NCBI GenBank assembly: GCA_025062095.1
Contig: JANXAZ010000029.1
Location: 1-41,868, forward strand
DNA: 41,868 nt
Reading direction: 5' to 3'
Source: Geminicoccaceae bacterium
GTDB taxonomy: Bacteria; Pseudomonadota; Alphaproteobacteria; Geminicoccales; Geminicoccaceae
A model generated the notes under the pieces. It made no database searches. It was not told the origin of the DNA and was given only the letters and a program-made list of their open reading frames with translations. Made by a program: the position numbers and the translations under genes. Positions 31,293-41,868 of this stretch are shown piece by piece. The number at the start of each line of letters is the position of its first letter. Position 1 is the stretch's first letter.

Positions 31293-32843
31293 ATGTCCGC
31301 GTCCCCCGTGCGCCCGAGGCTCGAACGGGCAAAGCCCGCCCAACGGCCGGCCGAACGCTTCCGCGCGGAACCCGCCGAACGCCCGGGCCTCGCCCGCGCG
31401 CGCTACGCCACCGTCGCGCACGCGGTGGGCTGGCTCCTCGTCGTCCTGGCCGCGGCCATGCTGCCGCCCATGGCCCTGGATCTGGCCGACGACAATCGCG
31501 ATTGGACCGGCTTCGCCGCCGCCGCCGCGCTCACCGGCTTCGTCGGGGTCGTGCTGTTGCTCGCCAGCCGCGGGCCGGAGCCGGCTCTCGACGTGCGCTC
31601 CGCTTTTCTGCTCACCGCCGCGAGTTGGCTCGCCGTTTCCGCCTTCGGCGCGCTGCCCTTCGTCTTCGGCGTGGCGCATCTCTCCTTCACCGACGCCGTC
31701 TTCGAGACCGTCTCCGGGCTCACCACCACCGGCTCGACGGTGATCACCGGGCTCGACAGCGCTCCTCGCGGCCTTCTTCTCTGGCGCGCGCTCTTGCAAT
31801 GGATGGGAGGGATCGGGATCGTCGTGGTCGGGCTGGTGATCCTGCCCTTCTTGCGCGTGGGCGGGATGCAGCTGTTCCGTACCGAAAGTTCCGATCGTTC
31901 CGACAAGCTCCTGGCTTCGACGGCGGCGATCGCGGCGCGCATGCTCGCCGTTTACCTCGTACTCACGCTGGCCTGCTTTCTCGCCCTCGACGCCGTCGGC
32001 TTGTCGCTGTTCGATGCTCTCCTGCACGCCATGACGGCGCTTTCGACCGGTGGTTATTCGAGCCGCGACGCCTCGATCGGCGCTTTCGCCAATCCCGCCG
32101 CCGAATGGGTGCTCGTGATCGCGATGCTCGCCGGCGCCCTCACCTTCACCCGCTATCTCGCCCTCGTCCTCGGCCGTCCGCATCTGTTCTTCGGCGATCC
32201 CCAGATCCGGCTCCTGCTCCTGATCGTGCTGACACTTTCGGCGATCCTCGCGCTCTGGCTCGTCTTCGTCCACGAGCGACCGCTTCCCTCGGCCGTCCGG
32301 GCCGCGCTGTTCGCCGTGGTCACGGTGATCACGACCACCGGCTTCGTCGCCGAAGACTGGCAGGAATGGGGCGCGCCCGTCCTCGGCCTGTTCCTGATCG
32401 TCACCGTGCTCGGCGGCTGCACCGGCTCTACCGCCGGCGGCATCAAGGTCTTCCGGGTCCAGATCCTGGCCTCGGCGACGCTCGCCTATCTCGCGGGCCT
32501 CCTCCACCCCAACCGCGTCGTCCCCATCCGCTGGGGCGACCGCCAGGTCGAACCCGAGCTCGTGCTCGCGGTCTTGAGCTTCGTGTTCCTCTTCGTCGGC
32601 AGCTGGGCTCTGTTCACCGTCCTGCTCTCCGGGCTCGGGCTCGATCTCGTGACCGCGGTTTCGGGCGCGGCGACCGCGCTCGCCAACGTGGGGCCGGGTC
32701 TGGGGCCGGTGATCGGTCCGTCGGGGAACTTCGCCTCGCTGTCCGATGCCGCGAAATGGGTCCTCGTGCTCGCCATGCTCCTGGGCCGGCTGGAATTCTT
32801 CACCCTCCTCGCGCTCTTGCATCCCGTCTTCTGGCGGCGCTGA
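31293..32843 (+). CDS. trkH: Potassium uptake protein TrkH family
   Basis: A protein of 516 residues, with about 8-10 membrane helices arranged as four M-P-M repeats. The pore loops with the filter glycines are visible: VSGLTTTGSTVI, AMTALSTGGYSS, VITTTGFVAEDW and ATALANVGPGLG. MQLFRTES and CTGSTAGGIKVFR are characteristic of TrkH. It is the K+ (or Na+)-conducting subunit, normally gated by the cytosolic TrkA; no TrkA gene is in the window. The N-terminal 35 residues are basic and Arg/Pro-rich before the first helix. It converges with the universal stress gene 60 bases downstream, a plausible osmotic-stress pair. Confidence 0.92.
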   Translation: MSASPVRPRLERAKPAQRPAERFRAEPAERPGLARARYATVAHAVGWLLVVLAAAMLPPMALDLADDNRDWTGFAAAAALTGFVGVVLLLASRGPEPALDVRSAFLLTAASWLAVSAFGALPFVFGVAHLSFTDAVFETVSGLTTTGSTVITGLDSAPRGLLLWRALLQWMGGIGIVVVGLVILPFLRVGGMQLFRTESSDRSDKLLASTAAIAARMLAVYLVLTLACFLALDAVGLSLFDALLHAMTALSTGGYSSRDASIGAFANPAAEWVLVIAMLAGALTFTRYLALVLGRPHLFFGDPQIRLLLLIVLTLSAILALWLVFVHERPLPSAVRAALFAVVTVITTTGFVAEDWQEWGAPVLGLFLIVTVLGGCTGSTAGGIKVFRVQILASATLAYLAGLLHPNRVVPIRWGDRQVEPELVLAVLSFVFLFVGSWALFTVLLSGLGLDLVTAVSGAATALANVGPGLGPVIGPSGNFASLSDAAKWVLVLAMLLGRLEFFTLLALLHPVFWRR

Positions 32844-34542: not shown

Positions 34543-35748
34543 TCATTCTCGCCGCAGCGCCTCGATCGGATCGAGCCGCGCCGCGCGGCGGGCCGGAAGC
34601 CACCCGAACAAGACCCCGATCGCGGCCGAGAACAAAAAGGATCCCGCCACCACCTCGGGATCGATGCGGAAGGGCACGGCGAGCGCTTCGGTCGTCGCCC
34701 CCGCCACCGCGAGCCCGAGGATCACCCCGATCGCTCCGCCCACACCAGAAAGCACCACCGCCTCGATCAGGAACTGCGCCATGACCTGTCCCTCGAGCGC
34801 GCCGATCGCGAGGCGGATGCCGATCTCCCGCGTGCGCTCGGTCACCGAGACGAGCATGATGTTCATGATCCCGATGCCGCCCACGATCAGGCTCACCGCC
34901 GCCACGAAGCCGAGCACGGCGGTGAGCGCCCCGCTCGTCGCCTCCACCGTGCGCACGAGCTCGCGCATGTCGCGGACCGAGAAATCGTCCTCTTCGCCCG
35001 GGCGGATGCCGCGCCGCTCGCGCAGCAGCCGCTCGAGCTCGGCTTGTATGCGCGCGGTATCCGCCCCTTCTCTGGCGGCGACGTAGATGCGCGGGATCTC
35101 GGTGTTCCCGGAAAGCCGGCGCTGGAAGGCGCGGAGCGGCATCACCACGGTGTCGTCGAGATCGGTGCCGAAGCTCGATTGGCCTTTGCTTTCGAGCACG
35201 CCCACGACCTCGCAGGGAACCTTCTTGACCCGGATCGTCTTTTCGATGGGATCCTCCGCGCCGAAGAGCGCGTCTTTGACGGTCGCACCGAGAATGCAAG
35301 CCGTCCGGCCCGAGCGCACCTCGCCTTCGGTGAAGAACCGGCCGGAGGCGAGCTTCCAGTCCTGCACGGCGAAAAGCGCGTTGTCGGTGCCGGTGATCGT
35401 GGTGATCCGGCTGGCGCCGGCGAAGGTCGCGGTCGCGGGCAGATGCGCGACCGGGGCCACCGCCTCGAGACCGCCCACCTGTTCCCGGATCGCCTGCACG
35501 TCGCGGTCGGTGAAGGGCCGCGCGGCGACCGTCGCGCGGCCGGGCCCCACTTGGCCCGGGAGGAGGAAGAGCACGTTGGTGCCGAGCCGGGCGAGATCGG
35601 CCGTCACGCGGGCCTGGGTGCCGCGGCCGATGGTGACCATGGCGATCACCGCGCCCACGCCGATGACGATCCCGAGCACGGTGAGAAACGAGCGCAGCGG
35701 GTTGCGCGCCAGCGCGCGCAGCGCGAGCCGCAGGGCCTCGACGATCAT
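34543..35748 (-). CDS. MacB-like ABC transporter permease
   Basis: A protein of 401 residues of the MacB/FtsX fold. A first helix (RSFLTVLGIVIGVGAVIAMVTIG, about 20-42) is followed by a large periplasmic MacB_PCD domain (about 45-270) and three C-terminal helices (FVAAVSLIVGGIGIMNIMLV, the region near 320-350, and the last at about 365-385), ending ARRAARLDPIEALRRE, the conserved FtsX tail. It lacks the ATPase domain, which is encoded by the upstream gene. It should move a substrate across the envelope together with the HlyD-type adaptor. It overlaps the ATPase stop by 4 bases (ATGA). No outer-membrane TolC gene is in the window. Confidence 0.93.
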   Translation of the reverse strand: MIVEALRLALRALARNPLRSFLTVLGIVIGVGAVIAMVTIGRGTQARVTADLARLGTNVLFLLPGQVGPGRATVAARPFTDRDVQAIREQVGGLEAVAPVAHLPATATFAGASRITTITGTDNALFAVQDWKLASGRFFTEGEVRSGRTACILGATVKDALFGAEDPIEKTIRVKKVPCEVVGVLESKGQSSFGTDLDDTVVMPLRAFQRRLSGNTEIPRIYVAAREGADTARIQAELERLLRERRGIRPGEEDDFSVRDMRELVRTVEATSGALTAVLGFVAAVSLIVGGIGIMNIMLVSVTERTREIGIRLAIGALEGQVMAQFLIEAVVLSGVGGAIGVILGLAVAGATTEALAVPFRIDPEVVAGSFLFSAAIGVLFGWLPARRAARLDPIEALRRE

Positions 35749-36452
35749 CGGCGCTCTCCGCGGCGCAGATCCGCGACGATGCGGCCGTCGCGAAACCGCA
35801 GCTCGCGCGCGGCGTAAGCCGCGATGTCGGGTTCGTGGGTGACCATCACGATCGTCAGTCCGCCGCGGTTGAGCTCGCTCAGAAGCGCCATGATCTCGTG
35901 GCTCGTCTTGCTGTCGAGGTTGCCCGTGGGCTCGTCGGCGAGCAGGAGAACCGGCTCGGAGACGAGGGCGCGGGCGATCGCCACCCGCTGCTGCTGCCCG
36001 CCGGAGAGCTCGGAGACGGAATGGCGCTCGCGGTCGGCGAGGCCCACCCGGGCGAGGGCCGCGCGCGCCCGCGCGCGCCGCTCGGCGGCCGGCAGTCCCC
36101 GGTAGACGAGCGGCAGTTCCACGTTCTCGAGCGCGCTCGTCCGCGGCAACAGATTGAACCCCTGAAAGACGAAGCCGATGAAATGACGGCGCACCAGCGC
36201 CAGGACCTCGCGCGGGGCGCGCTCGAGCGGGCGGCCGGCGAAGCGGTAGCTGCCCGAGGTGGGCCGATCGAGACAGCCCAGGATGTTCATCGCCGTCGAC
36301 TTGCCGGAACCCGAGGGGCCTGTGATCGCCACGAACTCGCCCGCTGTCACCGCGAGATCGACGGAATCGAGCGCGCGCACGGCGGCCGTCCCGCTCCCGT
36401 AGACCCGGCTCGCGGCCTCCAACGCGACGAGAGGGCGCGCAGCCTCGCTCAT
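35745..36452 (-). CDS. MacB-type ABC transporter ATP-binding protein
   Basis: A protein of 235 residues with only the nucleotide-binding domain. Walker A is GPSGSGKSTAMNILG (about 40-48), Q-loop VFQGFNLLPRTSALENVELPL, signature LSGGQQQRVAIARAL, Walker B VLLLADEPTGNLDS and H-loop MVTHEPDIA. This is the LolD/MacB branch. It is the energising half of a split MacB with the permease downstream, and overlaps the adaptor gene upstream by 4 bases. The frame continues far upstream inside the adaptor gene, but the ATG at 36452 matches the family start (MSEAARPLVALEAASRVYG). Confidence 0.95.
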   Translation of the reverse strand: MSEAARPLVALEAASRVYGSGTAAVRALDSVDLAVTAGEFVAITGPSGSGKSTAMNILGCLDRPTSGSYRFAGRPLERAPREVLALVRRHFIGFVFQGFNLLPRTSALENVELPLVYRGLPAAERRARARAALARVGLADRERHSVSELSGGQQQRVAIARALVSEPVLLLADEPTGNLDSKTSHEIMALLSELNRGGLTIVMVTHEPDIAAYAARELRFRDGRIVADLRRGERR

Positions 36453-37735
36453 CCGCTCGTCCGCCGCGGCAAGACCGCCTCGGTCACGACCCGAACCCCG
36501 GGCTCGAGCCCGCCGCGGATCACCGTCTCGCGCCCGTCCGTGGGCCCGATCTCGACCCGCACCGGCTCCGGGCGGCCCTCGCGCAGCACCCAGAGCGTGC
36601 GCTCGGGCCCGGTCTCCTCCCGCGGGCTCGGCTGGCGGAAGCGCGGCATCGCGGGCATCAGCGCGCGCAGCAGCCCCGGCCGCTCGGCCCGCTCCTCGAG
36701 AGGCGGGGAGAAGCGCAAGGCGGCGTTGGGCACGAGCACCGCATCCTCGACCGTCTGGACCGCGATCTCGGCGGTGGCGGTCATCCCCGGCCGCAGCGCG
36801 AGGTCGCGGTTGTCGACATCGAGGATCGCCTTGTAGGTGACCACCCCGGCCTGGAGCTCGGAGGCGAAGCGCACCTCGCGGATGGTGGCGGAGAAGCGCC
36901 GCTCGGGCCAGGCGTCCACGGTGAAGGTGGCGGGCTGGCCCGGGCGCACGCGGCCGACGTCCGCCTCGTCGACGTCGACCTGCACCTCCATCTGGGCGAG
37001 GTCCTCGGCGATCGTGAACAGACGCGGAGCCTGCAAGGTCGCGGCCACCGTCTGGCCGGGATCGACGTTGCGGTGCAGGACTACCCCGTCGATCGGGGCG
37101 AGGATCGAGGCCTTCTCGAGATCGACTTCGACCAGACGGAGCTCGGCCTCGGCCACCGCCACGTCGGCCTTGGCGCTTTCGAGGGCGGCGCGCGCCCGCT
37201 CGAAGGCGGCGGAAGCGACGTCGAGCTCGGAAGGCGGCGCCACCCGACGGCCGACGAGCTCGCGCTTGCGCTCGAGATCGCGCGTCCTTTCGGAAAGCGT
37301 CGCCTCCGCCTCGAGCACGCGTGCGCGTGCCGCTTGCACGCGCGCCCGCGCGCTCGCGAGCCGGGCTTCCAAGCGCGCGGTGTCGAGCCGGGCCAGGAGC
37401 TGGCCTTTTTTGACCGGGCTGTTGAAGTCGACGAACACCTCCCGCACGATGCCCGAAAGCTCGCTCGAGACTTCGACGAGCCGGCGCGGCTGGACCGTGC
37501 CGGTGGCGGTGACGACGACGGACAGCGTACCTTTTTTGGCCGGTACGGCGATCCAGCGGATCTCGCCCCCGGCCGGGCGGGCGAGCCAGAAGGCCACGGC
37601 CGTCGCGAGGGCGAGACCGCAGAGGGCGAGAAAAAGGCGCACGAGCCATCGCCTTCGGCGCAGCCTCGCCAGCGCCCGCTCGCCCAAGACCGCCTCGATC
37701 CGTTCTTCCAGTCCCCCGAGCGTGCCGACCGCCAT
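36449..37735 (-). CDS. MacA/HlyD-type periplasmic adaptor
   Basis: A protein of 428 residues, first gene of the export operon. A cytosolic leader is followed by one membrane helix (about 35-55, FLALCGLALATAVAFWLA). A lipoyl domain half (GTVQPRRLVEVSSELSGIVREVFVDFNSPVKKGQLLARLD), a long coiled-coil hairpin (about 115-205) with the ARLASARARVQAARARVLEAEATL repeats, and the second lipoyl half (APIDGVVLHRNVDPGQTV) follow in order; the beta-barrel is VRPGQPATFTVDAWPERRF. MacA-type proteins couple an inner membrane pump to TolC. The ATG at 37735 is preferred; a GTG at 37768 is the alternative. It is coupled to the ATPase by ATGA. Confidence 0.92.
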   Translation of the reverse strand: MAVGTLGGLEERIEAVLGERALARLRRRRWLVRLFLALCGLALATAVAFWLARPAGGEIRWIAVPAKKGTLSVVVTATGTVQPRRLVEVSSELSGIVREVFVDFNSPVKKGQLLARLDTARLEARLASARARVQAARARVLEAEATLSERTRDLERKRELVGRRVAPPSELDVASAAFERARAALESAKADVAVAEAELRLVEVDLEKASILAPIDGVVLHRNVDPGQTVAATLQAPRLFTIAEDLAQMEVQVDVDEADVGRVRPGQPATFTVDAWPERRFSATIREVRFASELQAGVVTYKAILDVDNRDLALRPGMTATAEIAVQTVEDAVLVPNAALRFSPPLEERAERPGLLRALMPAMPRFRQPSPREETGPERTLWVLREGRPEPVRVEIGPTDGRETVIRGGLEPGVRVVTEAVLPRRTSG

Positions 37736-37870
37736 GCCCTTCCGCCCGTCCGTCGCCGGCCGGCGCACCGGCCCGCGATCGCTTTTCGTTCGCGTTCGAA
37801 CTTAAGCGCGCGGACCGGGTGTCGTCGATCCGCCGCGCGGGCGCGGCGTCGAGCGGGCGGAAGCTCCGGG

Positions 37871-39019: not shown

Positions 39020-40162
39020 ATGCTCGGGCCGGCGGATTACCGAGATCTCGAGTCGGAGCTCGAACGTCAGCTCGCCGAAGACCGTTGCCTGCTCGACGAG
39101 CTTCGCGACGACGTGCGCACCGGTCTCGGTCCACCGAAACGCATTCAACCGCGTTCGTCTACAGCCATCTCGGTCGTCGCCACCGACGGCGGGAACAATC
39201 AACTCCGCTTCGATCCGTTTCTGATCCAATTGGTCCGCGTCGTCGACAGCAGCGCGAACGAATATTGCCTGGAGATCGTCTCGCCCACGATGAGCGTCCG
39301 ACGCCTGTCGCAGCGCCAGCTGTCCGGACGCGAGGGGCCCACGCCTCTGGGTCGAATGATGCAATTTTTGGGCGTCGCCGACCTCTCCGAGCTGAGCCCG
39401 ATGATCCCACCCGACGCTCCGGGCAGGCTCCGTTCACCCAGCTGGATCCAGGTCTACCGCGAGCTGGTCGAATGGGCGGTTCTCCTGGCGATCGCCCGCG
39501 AAAAAGACTTCGCGACCGACACGGTGATCGTCTTCGACGGTCTGCTCCGATCGAAAGTCTTCGCCGGCGACCTTTTCGCTCGATATCGTAGCGGCTTGCG
39601 CGATGCGATCGATCTCCAGTATCAGCGCCGTCGGCGTCAGTTGTTCGTGGTCGGGCTGGCGAAGCGAAGCAAGGTCCTCGATCGTTACCGTCTGGCGATG
39701 GCGCTCGAAGGAATCATGCAGGAACCTTTCCCCTGCTTCGTCGAGGTGCCACGTGCACTCGAGGAGAAGGTTTATCGCTGGTCGGAATACGCGAGAGGAG
39801 ACGACCGTGCTGCCGAAGGGGGAGAGATCAACAAGTTCGTCGCCGGTAAATTGTTCTTCGTCAAGTTCGGCCATGGTCGTTACGATCCGATATGGCCGGT
39901 AGACATCTTACAAGATCAGGCCGACCTGGCAGACACGATTTTCGGATGCCTTCTCGCGGACGCGCGCGACGGTTTTCCCATCCCGCTTTATCCGCGCTCC
40001 CTTCAAAAGGCCCACGAAAACGCGGCCCTTATGGACTTCGACGCCGCAGTTTTGCAGGACATGATCCTGGACACGTTGAGGAAGGGGCTCGGATCGGATT
40101 GTGGCATATTCGACGAATTTCGCCTGCTCGACGACGATCTGACCCCCCGTCGTTACGGTTGA
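39020..40162 (+). CDS. NurA-type nuclease
   Basis: A protein of 380 residues. NurA enzymes are RNase H-fold Mn-dependent nucleases that resect DNA ends with HerA. Visible motifs: AISVVATDGGNNQL with Asp56 (the 'DGs' first catalytic Asp), VIVFDGLLRSK with Asp173 (second DG motif), and VVGLAKRSKVL with Lys215, the 'iaK.s' segment following in NurA. WPVDILQ and an acidic C-terminus (RLLDDD) follow. The ATG at 39020 is the first start after a stop at 38978-38980, with GGAGAG 10 bases upstream. herA follows 7 bases later. Codons such as ATA and TTA suggest acquired DNA. Nuclease activity is inferred. Confidence 0.78.
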   Translation: MLGPADYRDLESELERQLAEDRCLLDELRDDVRTGLGPPKRIQPRSSTAISVVATDGGNNQLRFDPFLIQLVRVVDSSANEYCLEIVSPTMSVRRLSQRQLSGREGPTPLGRMMQFLGVADLSELSPMIPPDAPGRLRSPSWIQVYRELVEWAVLLAIAREKDFATDTVIVFDGLLRSKVFAGDLFARYRSGLRDAIDLQYQRRRRQLFVVGLAKRSKVLDRYRLAMALEGIMQEPFPCFVEVPRALEEKVYRWSEYARGDDRAAEGGEINKFVAGKLFFVKFGHGRYDPIWPVDILQDQADLADTIFGCLLADARDGFPIPLYPRSLQKAHENAALMDFDAAVLQDMILDTLRKGLGSDCGIFDEFRLLDDDLTPRRYG

Positions 40163-40169
40163 GCCGATC

Positions 40170-41868
40170 ATGGAGCTCTTTCCGCGCGACCGGATCGTCG
40201 GTGTCTTTCGAGGCTTCCGCGAAGGCGGCCTCGAGTTCCACGCGGATCTCGTACTTCCCTATCGCAGCGATTTTCAACGCATCCCGATGCACGGCCAATT
40301 CCTTCTCGTGCAGCTCGAAAATCCCCTAGAAGCTGTTCTGGGCCGGATCGCTTCCTTCTCGTCCGAGGGCAGGCTCGCTTCTGGAAGCGGCGAGGAATTC
40401 AACATTCGCGCCTTGCAGGAGAACCGACCGATACCGGAAGACATACGAGAAAAGTACGTCAAATATCGTGTCAACATCCGCGTACTGGGGGTTCTGAGAG
40501 CCGACCGCGGGCGGATCACCTTCGTACCTTCCCACCGCCGTCTTCCGCATGTCGGCAGTGCAGTCGCATTTCCCGCCCCCGAGATCCTGCAGGAGATCTG
40601 CGGTGCGAACATCGAAGGAGCGCCGATCGGCCATTTCGCATTGGGGGAATACGTTTACGCGAAAGAGGGTAATCTGCCGGACTGGGCTCGGCGGATGGAG
40701 CCCGAGATCCTCGTGCGCTTTCCGATCGCCAATCTCGTCGCGCGGCGGACGTTCGTGTTGGCGCGGGCGGGCTTCGGCAAATCCAATCTCAACAAGCTTC
40801 TCTTCAGCACGCTCTACGAAACCACCCCGACCGTCGTGAAGAGGGGAGGCAAGCGCGTTCCCGTCGGCACTGTGCTCTTCGATCCCGAAGGCGAATACTT
40901 CTGGCCCGACGACAAGGGCAGGCCCGGCCTTTGCGACGTGCCCCACTTGCGAGACAAGTTGGTGGTGTTCACAGCGCGCACCGCTCCGAGTGCGTTCTAT
41001 CAATCGTTTGTGGCAGGCGGCATCAGGCTGGATATCCGTCAGCTTCGGCCGGCCGATGTGATCTCGATCGCGGTACCGCCGGAAAGACAAGATCAACAGA
41101 ACGTCGCGAAATTGCGCGCTCTCGCTCCGAGCAAGTGGAGCGATCTCGTCGATTTGATTTACCAACACAAAGGAGGCGCCGACCTTAAAGAGATCGGCAA
41201 AATCTTACAACTTTCACTACCGCAACAGGAGGCCGAAGCGATTGCGGCAAGATCGAACATGATCAACATCGTAAATTTGTTGCATGATCCCAGTAGCCGC
41301 TTCCTGGATTTGCTCTTGTGGGCGCTCGAGGAGGGTAAGCTCTGCGTAGTGGACTTGTCCCAGATGCGGGGCCATCAAGGTTTCATCCTCGCGGGTATCG
41401 TGTTGCGCCGTATTTTCGACAAGAACCAGGACGAGTTCACTCGACGAGAGCCGCGTTCGATTCCGACCATTGCCGTGATCGAGGAAGCCCAAGCGGTACT
41501 GAACGAACGAGCTGCGGCGGCCGAGCCGTTCGTGACTTGGGTGAAGGAAGGGAGGAAATACGATCTCGGTGCCGTCATGATCACCCAGCAACCGAGCTCG
41601 ATCCCCGAAGAGATCTTGAGCCAAGGCGATAACTGGTTCGTTTTTCACTTGCTTTCGGCCGGCGACCTCTTCGCTCTGAAAAAGGCCAACGCTCATTACA
41701 GTGACGATCTCCTGAGCTCGCTTCTCAACGAGCCCATCCCCGGCCACTGTGTGTTCTGGAGCTCGGCCGGCGGCAAGGCTTACCCGATTCCGATCCGGGT
41801 GCTGTCGTTCGAGGCGCGCTACACGCCCCTCGATCCGACCTACTCGCGCTCCAGAGAAGAAACCTACG
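40170..41868 (+). CDS. HerA-type DNA translocase/helicase (3' end outside window)
   Basis: Open for 566 codons to the window end without a stop. The N-terminus (about 1-130) fits a HAS-barrel with a DRIVGVFRGF-type start. Walker A is AxxxxGKS at 198-205 (ARAGFGKS). The HerA-specific DPEGEY follows at 238-243, Walker B with IEEAQ at 437-441 (IAVIEEAQ), and VMITQQPSSIP, the family's TQRPS-like motif, comes about 30 residues later. HerA forms hexameric rings that pump DNA and activate a partner nuclease, here NurA 7 bases upstream. The ATG at 40170 has little ribosome-site sequence, so translational coupling is likely. Rare codons (ATA, TTA, CTA) fit acquisition. The C-terminus is not seen. Confidence 0.85.
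   Translation, partial: MELFPRDRIVGVFRGFREGGLEFHADLVLPYRSDFQRIPMHGQFLLVQLENPLEAVLGRIASFSSEGRLASGSGEEFNIRALQENRPIPEDIREKYVKYRVNIRVLGVLRADRGRITFVPSHRRLPHVGSAVAFPAPEILQEICGANIEGAPIGHFALGEYVYAKEGNLPDWARRMEPEILVRFPIANLVARRTFVLARAGFGKSNLNKLLFSTLYETTPTVVKRGGKRVPVGTVLFDPEGEYFWPDDKGRPGLCDVPHLRDKLVVFTARTAPSAFYQSFVAGGIRLDIRQLRPADVISIAVPPERQDQQNVAKLRALAPSKWSDLVDLIYQHKGGADLKEIGKILQLSLPQQEAEAIAARSNMINIVNLLHDPSSRFLDLLLWALEEGKLCVVDLSQMRGHQGFILAGIVLRRIFDKNQDEFTRREPRSIPTIAVIEEAQAVLNERAAAAEPFVTWVKEGRKYDLGAVMITQQPSSIPEEILSQGDNWFVFHLLSAGDLFALKKANAHYSDDLLSSLLNEPIPGHCVFWSSAGGKAYPIPIRVLSFEARYTPLDPTYSRSREETY

What the first reader, a model, noticed from the sequence alone, without database searches (positions are those of the whole stretch)
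39020..41868. NurA-HerA gene pair, a candidate DNA-end-processing or anti-phage module
Two adjacent genes, 7 bases apart, encode a nuclease with the NurA signatures (DGG at 56, FDG at 173, AK at 214-215) and a HerA-type translocase (P-loop 198-205, DPEGEY, IEEAQ, TQQPS). Archaeal NurA and HerA resect DNA ends together, and bacterial HerA-nuclease pairs act in phage defence. The sequence divergence (DGG instead of DGS, Ala at the first P-loop position) and acquired-looking codon use make this pair worth isolating as a possible new subtype.
Basis: partly seen in the sequence, partly recalled or inferred. Interest (0 to 1): 0.75.

Follow-up and report, generated by a model that had tools for sequence, protein, structure and literature searches.

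The report
NurA-HerA-methylase module, probable restriction system
The gene pair at the end of this contig belongs to a three-gene module (a DNA cutter, a ring-type DNA pump and a DNA methylase) that moves between bacteria and most likely protects them by destroying DNA that lacks the cell's own methyl mark.

Summary
Window 39020-40162 encodes a NurA-like nuclease (380 aa) and 40170-41868 a HerA-like translocase, 7 bp apart. The contig ends inside HerA: complete relatives have about 700 aa, and a matching C-terminus plus a DNA methylase gene lie at the start of another contig (C73) of the same genome.

Of 80 related loci, 71 can be tested for a neighbouring methylase: it is adjacent to HerA or NurA in 51, within 10 kb in 5, not found nearby in 15. 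The closest solved structures of both proteins are one complex, TdpB and TdpA, recalled as the restriction arm of a phosphorothioate defence system. Here a SAM-type methylase with an N4-cytosine-like TSPPY motif is the third gene.

The module is rare and patchy, occurs in 16 phyla, and differs in GC from its host. In some proteobacteria methylase and NurA-HerA bracket known defence genes.

Best reading: a methylation-gated HerA-nuclease restriction system, a new variant of the TdpAB kind. No activity was tested.

The parts
39020..40162 (+). NurA-like (TdpB-like) nuclease, 380 aa; D56, D76, E148, E151, D173, K215, Y324, H332 invariant in the family
   Evidence: ORF; Pfam NurA 22.1 bits; conservation over 76 rows; AF2 model (mean pLDDT 85.7) closest to TdpB 8wfd_G, Z 24.3, 332 aligned, rmsd 4.1
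40163..40169 (+). 7-bp spacer between the two genes (operon-like)
   Evidence: NurA-HerA gaps in 78 loci run from -7 to 39 bp in all but four (64, 186, 734, 776)
40170..41868 (+). HerA-like (TdpA-like) DNA translocase, first 566 aa only: N-terminal region plus RecA-like motor (P-loop 198-205, DPEGEY 238, IEEAQ 437, TQQPS 472). The rest (138 codons) is at G000:C73:3-419, followed 18 bp later by the methylase frame G000:C73:438-1550 (370 aa; DPFCGRGTT at 39, TSPPYYG at 238), both outside the window
   Evidence: relatives' profile best hit TdpA; L010 model

Best explanation
A three-gene, horizontally transferred restriction-modification-like defence module. The methylase (third gene, on contig C73) marks the cell's own DNA, probably as N4-methylcytosine. 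HerA forms a ring that threads and pumps double-stranded DNA and carries a NurA/TdpB-type RNase H-fold nuclease at one face. DNA that carries the mark is left alone because the mark stops loading or translocation; unmarked incoming phage or plasmid DNA is pumped through and cut up. Shown here: the genes, their order, linkage to the methylase, predicted folds, conserved motifs, patchy spread and defence-gene neighbours. Inferred: that C65 and C73 join, complex formation, the type of mark, gating of the nuclease by the mark, and phage resistance.
For: Linkage: of 80 loci (the best 80 of 97 found), 71 can be tested. The methylase directly follows HerA in 49 (36 same strand with gaps of -32 to +20 bp, 12 of them exactly -4; 11 convergent; 2 with an interrupted HerA), directly precedes NurA in 2 and lies within 10 kb in 5. 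In the window's genome a methylase 56% identical to that of L010 and a HerA C-terminus sit at the start of C73. No fourth gene family of comparable spread was seen among the 80 loci (other large clusters judged by position to be shadow frames). Fold and sequence: TdpB is the only PDB sequence hit of the NurA profile at E<=1 (E 0.0018) and TdpA the best of the HerA profile (E 2e-27); Z 24.3 for TdpB against 14.5 for the best archaeal NurA and 9.8 for Deinococcus NurA; Z 23.9 for TdpA, next entries 21.3 and below. Methylase: Pfam N6_N4_Mtase 42-44 bits in three relatives; SPPY in 54 of 54 rows, the T before it in 53; nearest PDB chains include cytosine-N4 methyltransferases 8s9n and 8s9m. Mobility: 2 of 398 phylum, 2 of 385 class and 1 of 31 family genomes, own genome counted each time; 16 phyla on one NurA tree with 28 label changes where 15 is the minimum; low GC and GC3. 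Context: type I R, M and S genes plus a GmrSD enzyme lie between methylase and NurA-HerA in L123, TmtA-like, UvrD-PDDEXK and type III-like methylase genes in L121, and a SIR2/Dsr1-like gene beside the methylase in L043; PADLOC at E<=1e-15: 125 families hit by 84 neighbour ORFs against 4 by 80 control ORFs.
Against: No activity, phage or methylation data. 15 of 71 testable loci lack this methylase nearby; of the 24 genomes whose locus showed none, 6 have a match anywhere at E<=1e-15 (L031, L039, L074 about 1e-146; L084 4.5e-51; L012 1e-23; L087 3e-19) and 18 have none, though many are MAGs. Two methylase subfamilies (45-47% identical) occur with NurA about 88% identical (L043, L052 against L028, L029), so methylase and effector are not strictly locked together; the identity correlation is 0.51 for NurA-methylase and 0.44 for HerA-methylase against 0.85 for NurA-HerA. 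The PDB matches of the methylase cover only its SAM-binding part and include adenine methylases, so the target base is not shown. No separate specificity subunit was seen. NurA scores only just above the Pfam cut-off and was missed by the genome-wide Pfam search. PADLOC family counts are inflated by overlapping models (each of the 25 families listed has 3 members, mostly helicase models), the number of distinct ORFs hit is not given, controls are all Pseudomonadota and were not free of hits (mad3 in 2 ORFs, SspH, mad8). A published gene set of the same order acts in DNA donation.
Confidence: 0.66

Rival explanations
1. A DNA-transfer module like the tdtA operon of ICETh1 in Thermus thermophilus: HerA exports DNA, NurA trims it, and the methylase protects or marks it.
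For: The ICETh1 operon has the same order: NurA-like (377 aa), HerA-like TdtA (568 aa), N4/N6 methylase (410 aa); NurA-like and TdtA are needed for DNA donation (PMC5365140, PMC7767461; passages seen). Serine-recombinase-like frames occur in 6 of 80 loci (named by eye) and an integrase-like frame in L122 (by eye).
Against: In ICETh1 loss of the methylase has only minor effects on transfer while the type IIG enzyme is required (PMC7767461); no fourth gene of comparable spread was seen in the 80 loci; the methylase is the most constant partner here; HerA here is about 130 aa longer than TdtA. Homology to the Thermus proteins could not be tested (sequences not held).
Confidence: 0.12
2. Methylation-dependent (type IV-like) or regulatory module: the nuclease attacks DNA that carries some mark, or the methylase serves gene regulation while NurA-HerA does something unrelated.
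For: The methylase subfamily can change while NurA-HerA stays nearly the same; some loci have NurA-HerA without the methylase.
Against: In an attack-the-mark system a linked methylase making the target mark would be self-destructive (reasoning); adjacency is conserved over many phyla.
Confidence: 0.1
3. Ordinary repair NurA-HerA that resects double-strand ends.
For: Pfam NurA and DUF87 matches; fold kinship to archaeal NurA-HerA.
Against: NurA-like gene absent from 30 of 31 family genomes; foreign composition; both proteins score highest with TdpB/TdpA; NCBIfam repair HerA models far below cut-off (52.2 of 800 and 41.2 of 970 bits for the window's fragment; 56.1 and 44.9 for full-length L010).
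Confidence: 0.05

Closest known systems
TdpAB (PDB 8wet, 8wfd), effector pair of a Thermus phosphorothioate-based defence system (function recalled; its papers did not appear in the listings)
   Same: Best fold and sequence match of both proteins is to one and the same complex: HerA-type ATPase plus RNase H-fold nuclease.
   Different: Identity only 16-26% in the structural alignments; HerA here has an extra linker and a C-terminal domain of about 90 aa; the third gene is a SAM-type DNA methylase.
tdtA operon of ICETh1, Thermus thermophilus HB27 (PMC5365140, PMC7767461; passages)
   Same: Gene order NurA-like, HerA-like, PF01555 methylase, the last two overlapping by 4 bp.
   Different: Has a type IIG enzyme gene upstream that is required; TdtA is 568 aa; reported role is DNA donation; homology not testable here.
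HerA-SIR2 / HerA-DUF4297 defence complexes (PDB 8woc, 8wiv, 8j4u, 8ziq)
   Same: HerA ring plus effector, used against phage (recalled, and PDB titles).
   Different: Other effectors; fold scores below TdpA (Z 21.3 and less).
Archaeal and Deinococcus NurA-HerA repair pairs (PDB 3tai, 2ygk, 9x1m, 7f6d)
   Same: Same two folds.
   Different: More distant for NurA (Z 9.8-14.5 against 24.3); no methylase partner known to me (recalled).
ATP-dependent type I and III restriction-modification (recalled)
   Same: Translocating motor plus nuclease gated by a methylase.
   Different: Those use SF2 helicases and shared subunits; here a HerA-type ring and no specificity subunit.

Membership tests
NurA nuclease (PF09376) | Pfam NurA profile above its cut-off | tested here: inconclusive
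   Window 22.1 bits, cut-off 21; no genome-wide match at E<=0.001; L010 13.6; 21 of 44 members, window included, at E<=0.1
NurA nuclease (PF09376) | NurA-type RNase H-like fold | tested here: met
   Predicted model: Z 14.5 to 3tai_A (265 aligned, rmsd 4.4), 14.3 to 2ygk_A (263, 3.8)
NurA nuclease (PF09376) | Acidic/His/Tyr active-site residues kept | tested here: inconclusive
   D56, D173, Y324 and H332 invariant in 76 of 76 rows; their match with the Sulfolobus active site is recalled and was not mapped
HerA translocase (PF01935) | DUF87 motor with Walker A and B | tested here: met
   62 bits, cut-off 23.2; GxGK[S] core and EE of Walker B in 68 of 68 rows; Z 20.9 to 9x1m_A and 19.7 to 4d2i_A for the L010 model
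HerA repair equivalogs (NCBIfam NF040819, NF040937) | Score above the curated cut-off | tested here: not met
   41.2 of 970 and 52.2 of 800 bits for the window's 566-aa fragment; 44.9 and 56.1 for full-length L010
TdpABC defence system | Effector pair with TdpA and TdpB folds | tested here: met
   Best match of both proteins
TdpABC defence system | Phosphorothioate-modification gene alongside | tested here: inconclusive
   No fourth gene family of comparable spread in the 80 loci; no TdpC profile was searched; DNA sulphur content not testable
Restriction-modification system | DNA methylase gene linked to the nuclease | tested here: met
   Adjacent in 51 of 71 testable loci, within 10 kb in 56 of 71; own genome C73
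Restriction-modification system | Methylation protects DNA from the nuclease | not testable with these tools
   Needs biochemistry
ICETh1 DNA-donation operon | NurA, HerA, PF01555 methylase in this order on one strand | tested here: met
   36 of 71 testable loci; Thermus order from PMC5365140
ICETh1 DNA-donation operon | Type IIG enzyme gene at the head of the operon | tested here: not met
   No such gene directly upstream of the window's NurA; no fourth family of comparable spread in the loci
Known PADLOC (2023) defence systems | Nuclease and HerA both match models of one system | tested here: not met
   NurA-like protein: 0 families; HerA: partial matches to HerA and mad8 models

The most novel reading that the evidence does not exclude
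A new class of ATP-dependent restriction-modification in which a hexameric HerA ring, rather than an SF2 helicase, is the restriction motor: it pumps DNA into a TdpB-type nuclease unless N4-cytosine methylation by the linked methylase blocks it. It spans at least 16 phyla including an archaeon, lacks any specificity subunit, and in some proteobacteria its methylase and its NurA-HerA pair form the two ends of an exchangeable defence island.
Probability: 0.45. Interest if true: 0.75.

Novelty: new variant of a known kind. Interest (0 to 1): 0.6.

Why it matters
If true, one HerA-nuclease engine can be paired with quite different self-marks (phosphorothioate in Tdp, as recalled; base methylation here). 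It would add a compact three-gene restriction system whose nuclease the PADLOC version searched here does not cover, and it gives a directly testable model of how a mark stops a ring translocase, in sources such as Methylococcus capsulatus str. Texas or Desulfacinum infernum.

Tried and rejected
Repair role: rejected as main reading (patchy presence, methylase partner, closer fold kin). C-terminal HerA domain as reader of the methylase's mark: considered because it is variable (mean pairwise identity 0.38, linker 0.27, motor 0.77), but L022 and L043, whose methylases belong to different subfamilies, have nearly the same C-terminal domain (printed), so it is not supported. Its predicted four helices and beta hairpin look to me like a winged helix, but the VIA rows span residues 5-571, so the fold of that domain was not tested. 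Plasmid or phage carriage: tblastn of NurA found no match in either collection; HerA of L010 found 14 plasmid records with partial matches of 25-34% identity. HerA against phages and both against viral contigs were not searched. Literature: of the searches I saw listings (titles and starts of abstracts; searches list only 20 of 62, 12 of 72 and 3 of 797), and no listed title or abstract start describes this trio as a defence system; most hits were not opened. One search was badly built and tells nothing. Passages only were seen of PMC12839542, PMC11291478, PMC10853773, PMC5365140, PMC12904381, PMC9960219, PMC7767461. Subscription papers and bioRxiv are outside the library, and the 2004 FtsK-HerA survey is not held, so prior description elsewhere is not excluded. 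Recalled, from no call: the role of TdpAB and TdpC, the SPPY rule for N4-cytosine methylases, the Sulfolobus NurA active site. The clustering shows its first 30 clusters; that the large extra ones are shadow frames is my judgement from position and look.
Full report
OBSERVATION. The two genes exist as described: NurA-like 39020-40162 and HerA-like 40170-41867 (+), separated by 7 bp. Pfam gives NurA 22.1 bits (cut-off 21) and DUF87 62 bits; the same NurA model run over the whole own genome reported nothing at E<=0.001, so the Pfam evidence alone is thin. The window is the whole contig C65 of a 3.3-Mb genome in 143 contigs, so HerA is cut off at residue 566. Searching the genome with the C-terminal part and the methylase of relative L010 finds both at the start of contig C73: an open frame from base 3 with a stop at 417-419 (138 codons, 30% identical over the matched part) and, 18 bp on, a methylase frame at 438-1550 (370 aa, 56% identical). 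The pieces are of the right size and order for one operon split by assembly; the join itself is inferred.

RELATIVES. A scan of the genome collection (84,980 species by its description) with a two-sequence alignment found 97 relatives, of which the best 80 are held, at 48-66% identity to the window's NurA. The query patterns were strict, so distant members are missed. The 74 rows of the NurA tree with an assignable phylum fall into 16 phyla, including one archaeon (L082). Complete HerA relatives have 678-738 aa (after leaving out cut and interrupted ones). The P-loop ARAGFGKS is the same in 68 rows but for one F-to-Y change, and D56, D76, E148, E151, D173, K215, Y324 and H332 of NurA are invariant in 76 rows.

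THE THIRD GENE. A methylase of about 368 aa stands next to the pair. Of 80 loci, 2 hold no HerA and 7 end within 1.1 kb of HerA, which leaves 71. In 49 of 71 the methylase directly follows HerA (36 same strand, 11 convergent, 2 with an interrupted HerA), in 2 it directly precedes NurA (gaps 0 and 126 bp), in 5 it lies within 10 kb, and in 15 it was not found. Gaps in the 36 are -32 to +20 bp, 12 of them -4 (start codons chosen by script). Of the 24 genomes whose locus lacked it, 6 have a match at E<=1e-15 and 18 do not; three are very strong (E about 1e-146), and in L039 and L074 the methylase is on the same contig (equal contig lengths), some 15 kb upstream. An all-against-all comparison of ORFs showed NurA in 80 loci, HerA in 78 and the methylase in 58; the other large clusters look like shadow frames of these genes, and the rest are in few loci. 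The own-genome protein has DPFCGRGTT at 39 and TSPPYYG at 238. Three relatives match PF01555 at 42-44 bits; the profile's nearest solved relatives are DNA methylases, among them cytosine-N4 and adenine enzymes, and the match joins the N-terminal part here to the C-terminal part there, so the domain order is swapped. N4-cytosine methylation is likely from the SPPY motif (recalled rule) but not shown.

FOLDS. The NurA model (mean pLDDT 85.7) matches TdpB best by Foldseek (E 1e-11) and VIA-align (Z 24.3, 332 aligned, rmsd 4.1), then archaeal NurA (Z 14.5) and, lower, Thermotoga and Deinococcus NurA-type proteins (Z 10.9 and 9.8), with Argonautes around 10. The HerA model of L010 (mean pLDDT 79.4) matches TdpA best (E 1e-22; Z 23.9, 465 aligned, rmsd 4.7); other defence and archaeal HerAs follow at Z 21.3 and below. 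Sequence profiles agree: TdpB is the only PDB hit for NurA at E<=1 (E 0.0018) and TdpA the best for HerA (E 2e-27). The last 90 aa of HerA, after a variable linker, are predicted as four helices and a beta hairpin; their mean pairwise identity is 0.38 against 0.77 in the motor.

MOBILITY AND CONTEXT. The nuclease is found in 2 of 398 phylum genomes, 2 of 385 class genomes, 1 of 31 family genomes and 1 of 6 genus genomes, the own genome counted each time. On the NurA tree, phylum labels need 28 changes where 15 is the least possible (shuffled mean 39.8, so kinship also shows); near-identical copies occur in different families and, in one pair, different phyla, though mis-binned contigs could explain single cases. 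The genes have GC 0.53-0.63 against 0.70-0.72, and GC3 0.71-0.73 against 0.88-0.91. In Bordetella genomosp. 2 (L039, L121, L122) the stretch between methylase and NurA-HerA holds a 1422-aa protein with AAA/helicase domains, a TnsA-like/ResIII protein, a type III-like methylase, a UvrD-PDDEXK protein and a TmtA-like protein, with an integrase-like frame (by eye) beyond the methylase. In Pokkaliibacter (L074, L123) it holds a WYL-like protein (by eye; its likeness in L032 was scanned), type I M, S and R genes, a GmrSD enzyme and a 1418-aa protein that looks like the same helicase. Nearest-neighbour ORFs hit 125 PADLOC families at E<=1e-15 (84 ORFs) against 4 for control regions (80 ORFs; mad3, SspH and mad8 models); the family count is inflated by overlapping models, and the number of distinct ORFs hit is not given.

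MECHANISM. The best explanation is a TdpAB-like translocase-nuclease held off self DNA by methylation from the linked methylase. Shown: gene content, linkage, predicted folds, conserved motifs, spread. Inferred: the contig join, the complex, the target of the methylase, block by methylation, phage resistance. The strongest cautions are the loci without a methylase, the looser co-variation of methylase with effector (Spearman 0.51 and 0.44 against 0.85 for NurA-HerA in 51 loci, all above their permutation maxima of 0.27-0.37), the swap of methylase subfamily in L043 and L052, and the published Thermus operon of the same gene order that serves DNA donation (PMC5365140, PMC7767461; passages).

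NOVELTY. In the listings of the searches made (above all) no title or abstract start describes the trio as a defence system, and the PADLOC models of 2023 do not cover the nuclease. Subscription papers and preprints were not searchable. I file it as a new variant of a known kind: TdpAB-like restriction with a base methylase.

Noticed in passing
L025:1037-5281, L121:15033-19298, L123:13770-18023, L124:485-4738: A protein of about 1420 aa with alike N-termini (by eye; C-terminal helicase domains similar to DpdJ/MkoA, scanned on the L121 copy only) lies convergent to the methylase in four proteobacterial loci; it may be a further partner of this branch.
   Followed up: partly
L043, L052 against L028, L029: The methylase belongs to another subfamily (45-47% identical to the others) although NurA is about 88% identical: a likely methylase swap.
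   Followed up: partly
L066:8838-9911, L087:6226-7575: Different SPPY-type methylases (PF01555) lie upstream of NurA instead of the usual one.
   Followed up: partly
L061: A module without the usual methylase has a SNF2 helicase, an N6-methylase-type protein and a DUF4007 protein nearby, reminiscent of BREX-related islands.
   Followed up: partly
L040, L041, L064, L067, L083, L084, L088: NurA or HerA is interrupted or shortened in these loci (open frames too short), which suggests decay or sequencing errors.
   Followed up: no
L003 (G000:C33), L004 (G000:C61): Two more HerA-like ATPases of the own genome with GSTGSGKS and GATGSGKS P-loops; downstream frames look like a valyl-tRNA synthetase and an agmatinase-type enzyme (named by eye).
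   Followed up: no
L072 and L075: A record titled Cyanobacteria (L075) carries a NurA almost identical to one from Phycisphaerales (L072): recent transfer or a mis-binned contig.
   Followed up: no
window 31817-31911: ARAGORN calls a tRNA-Ala inside a long ORF (31293-32843) that looks like a potassium-uptake membrane protein by eye; probably a false positive.
   Followed up: no
window 34543-37768 (-): An apparent MacAB-like export set (membrane fusion protein, ABC ATPase, permease), named by eye, lies upstream of the module.
   Followed up: no
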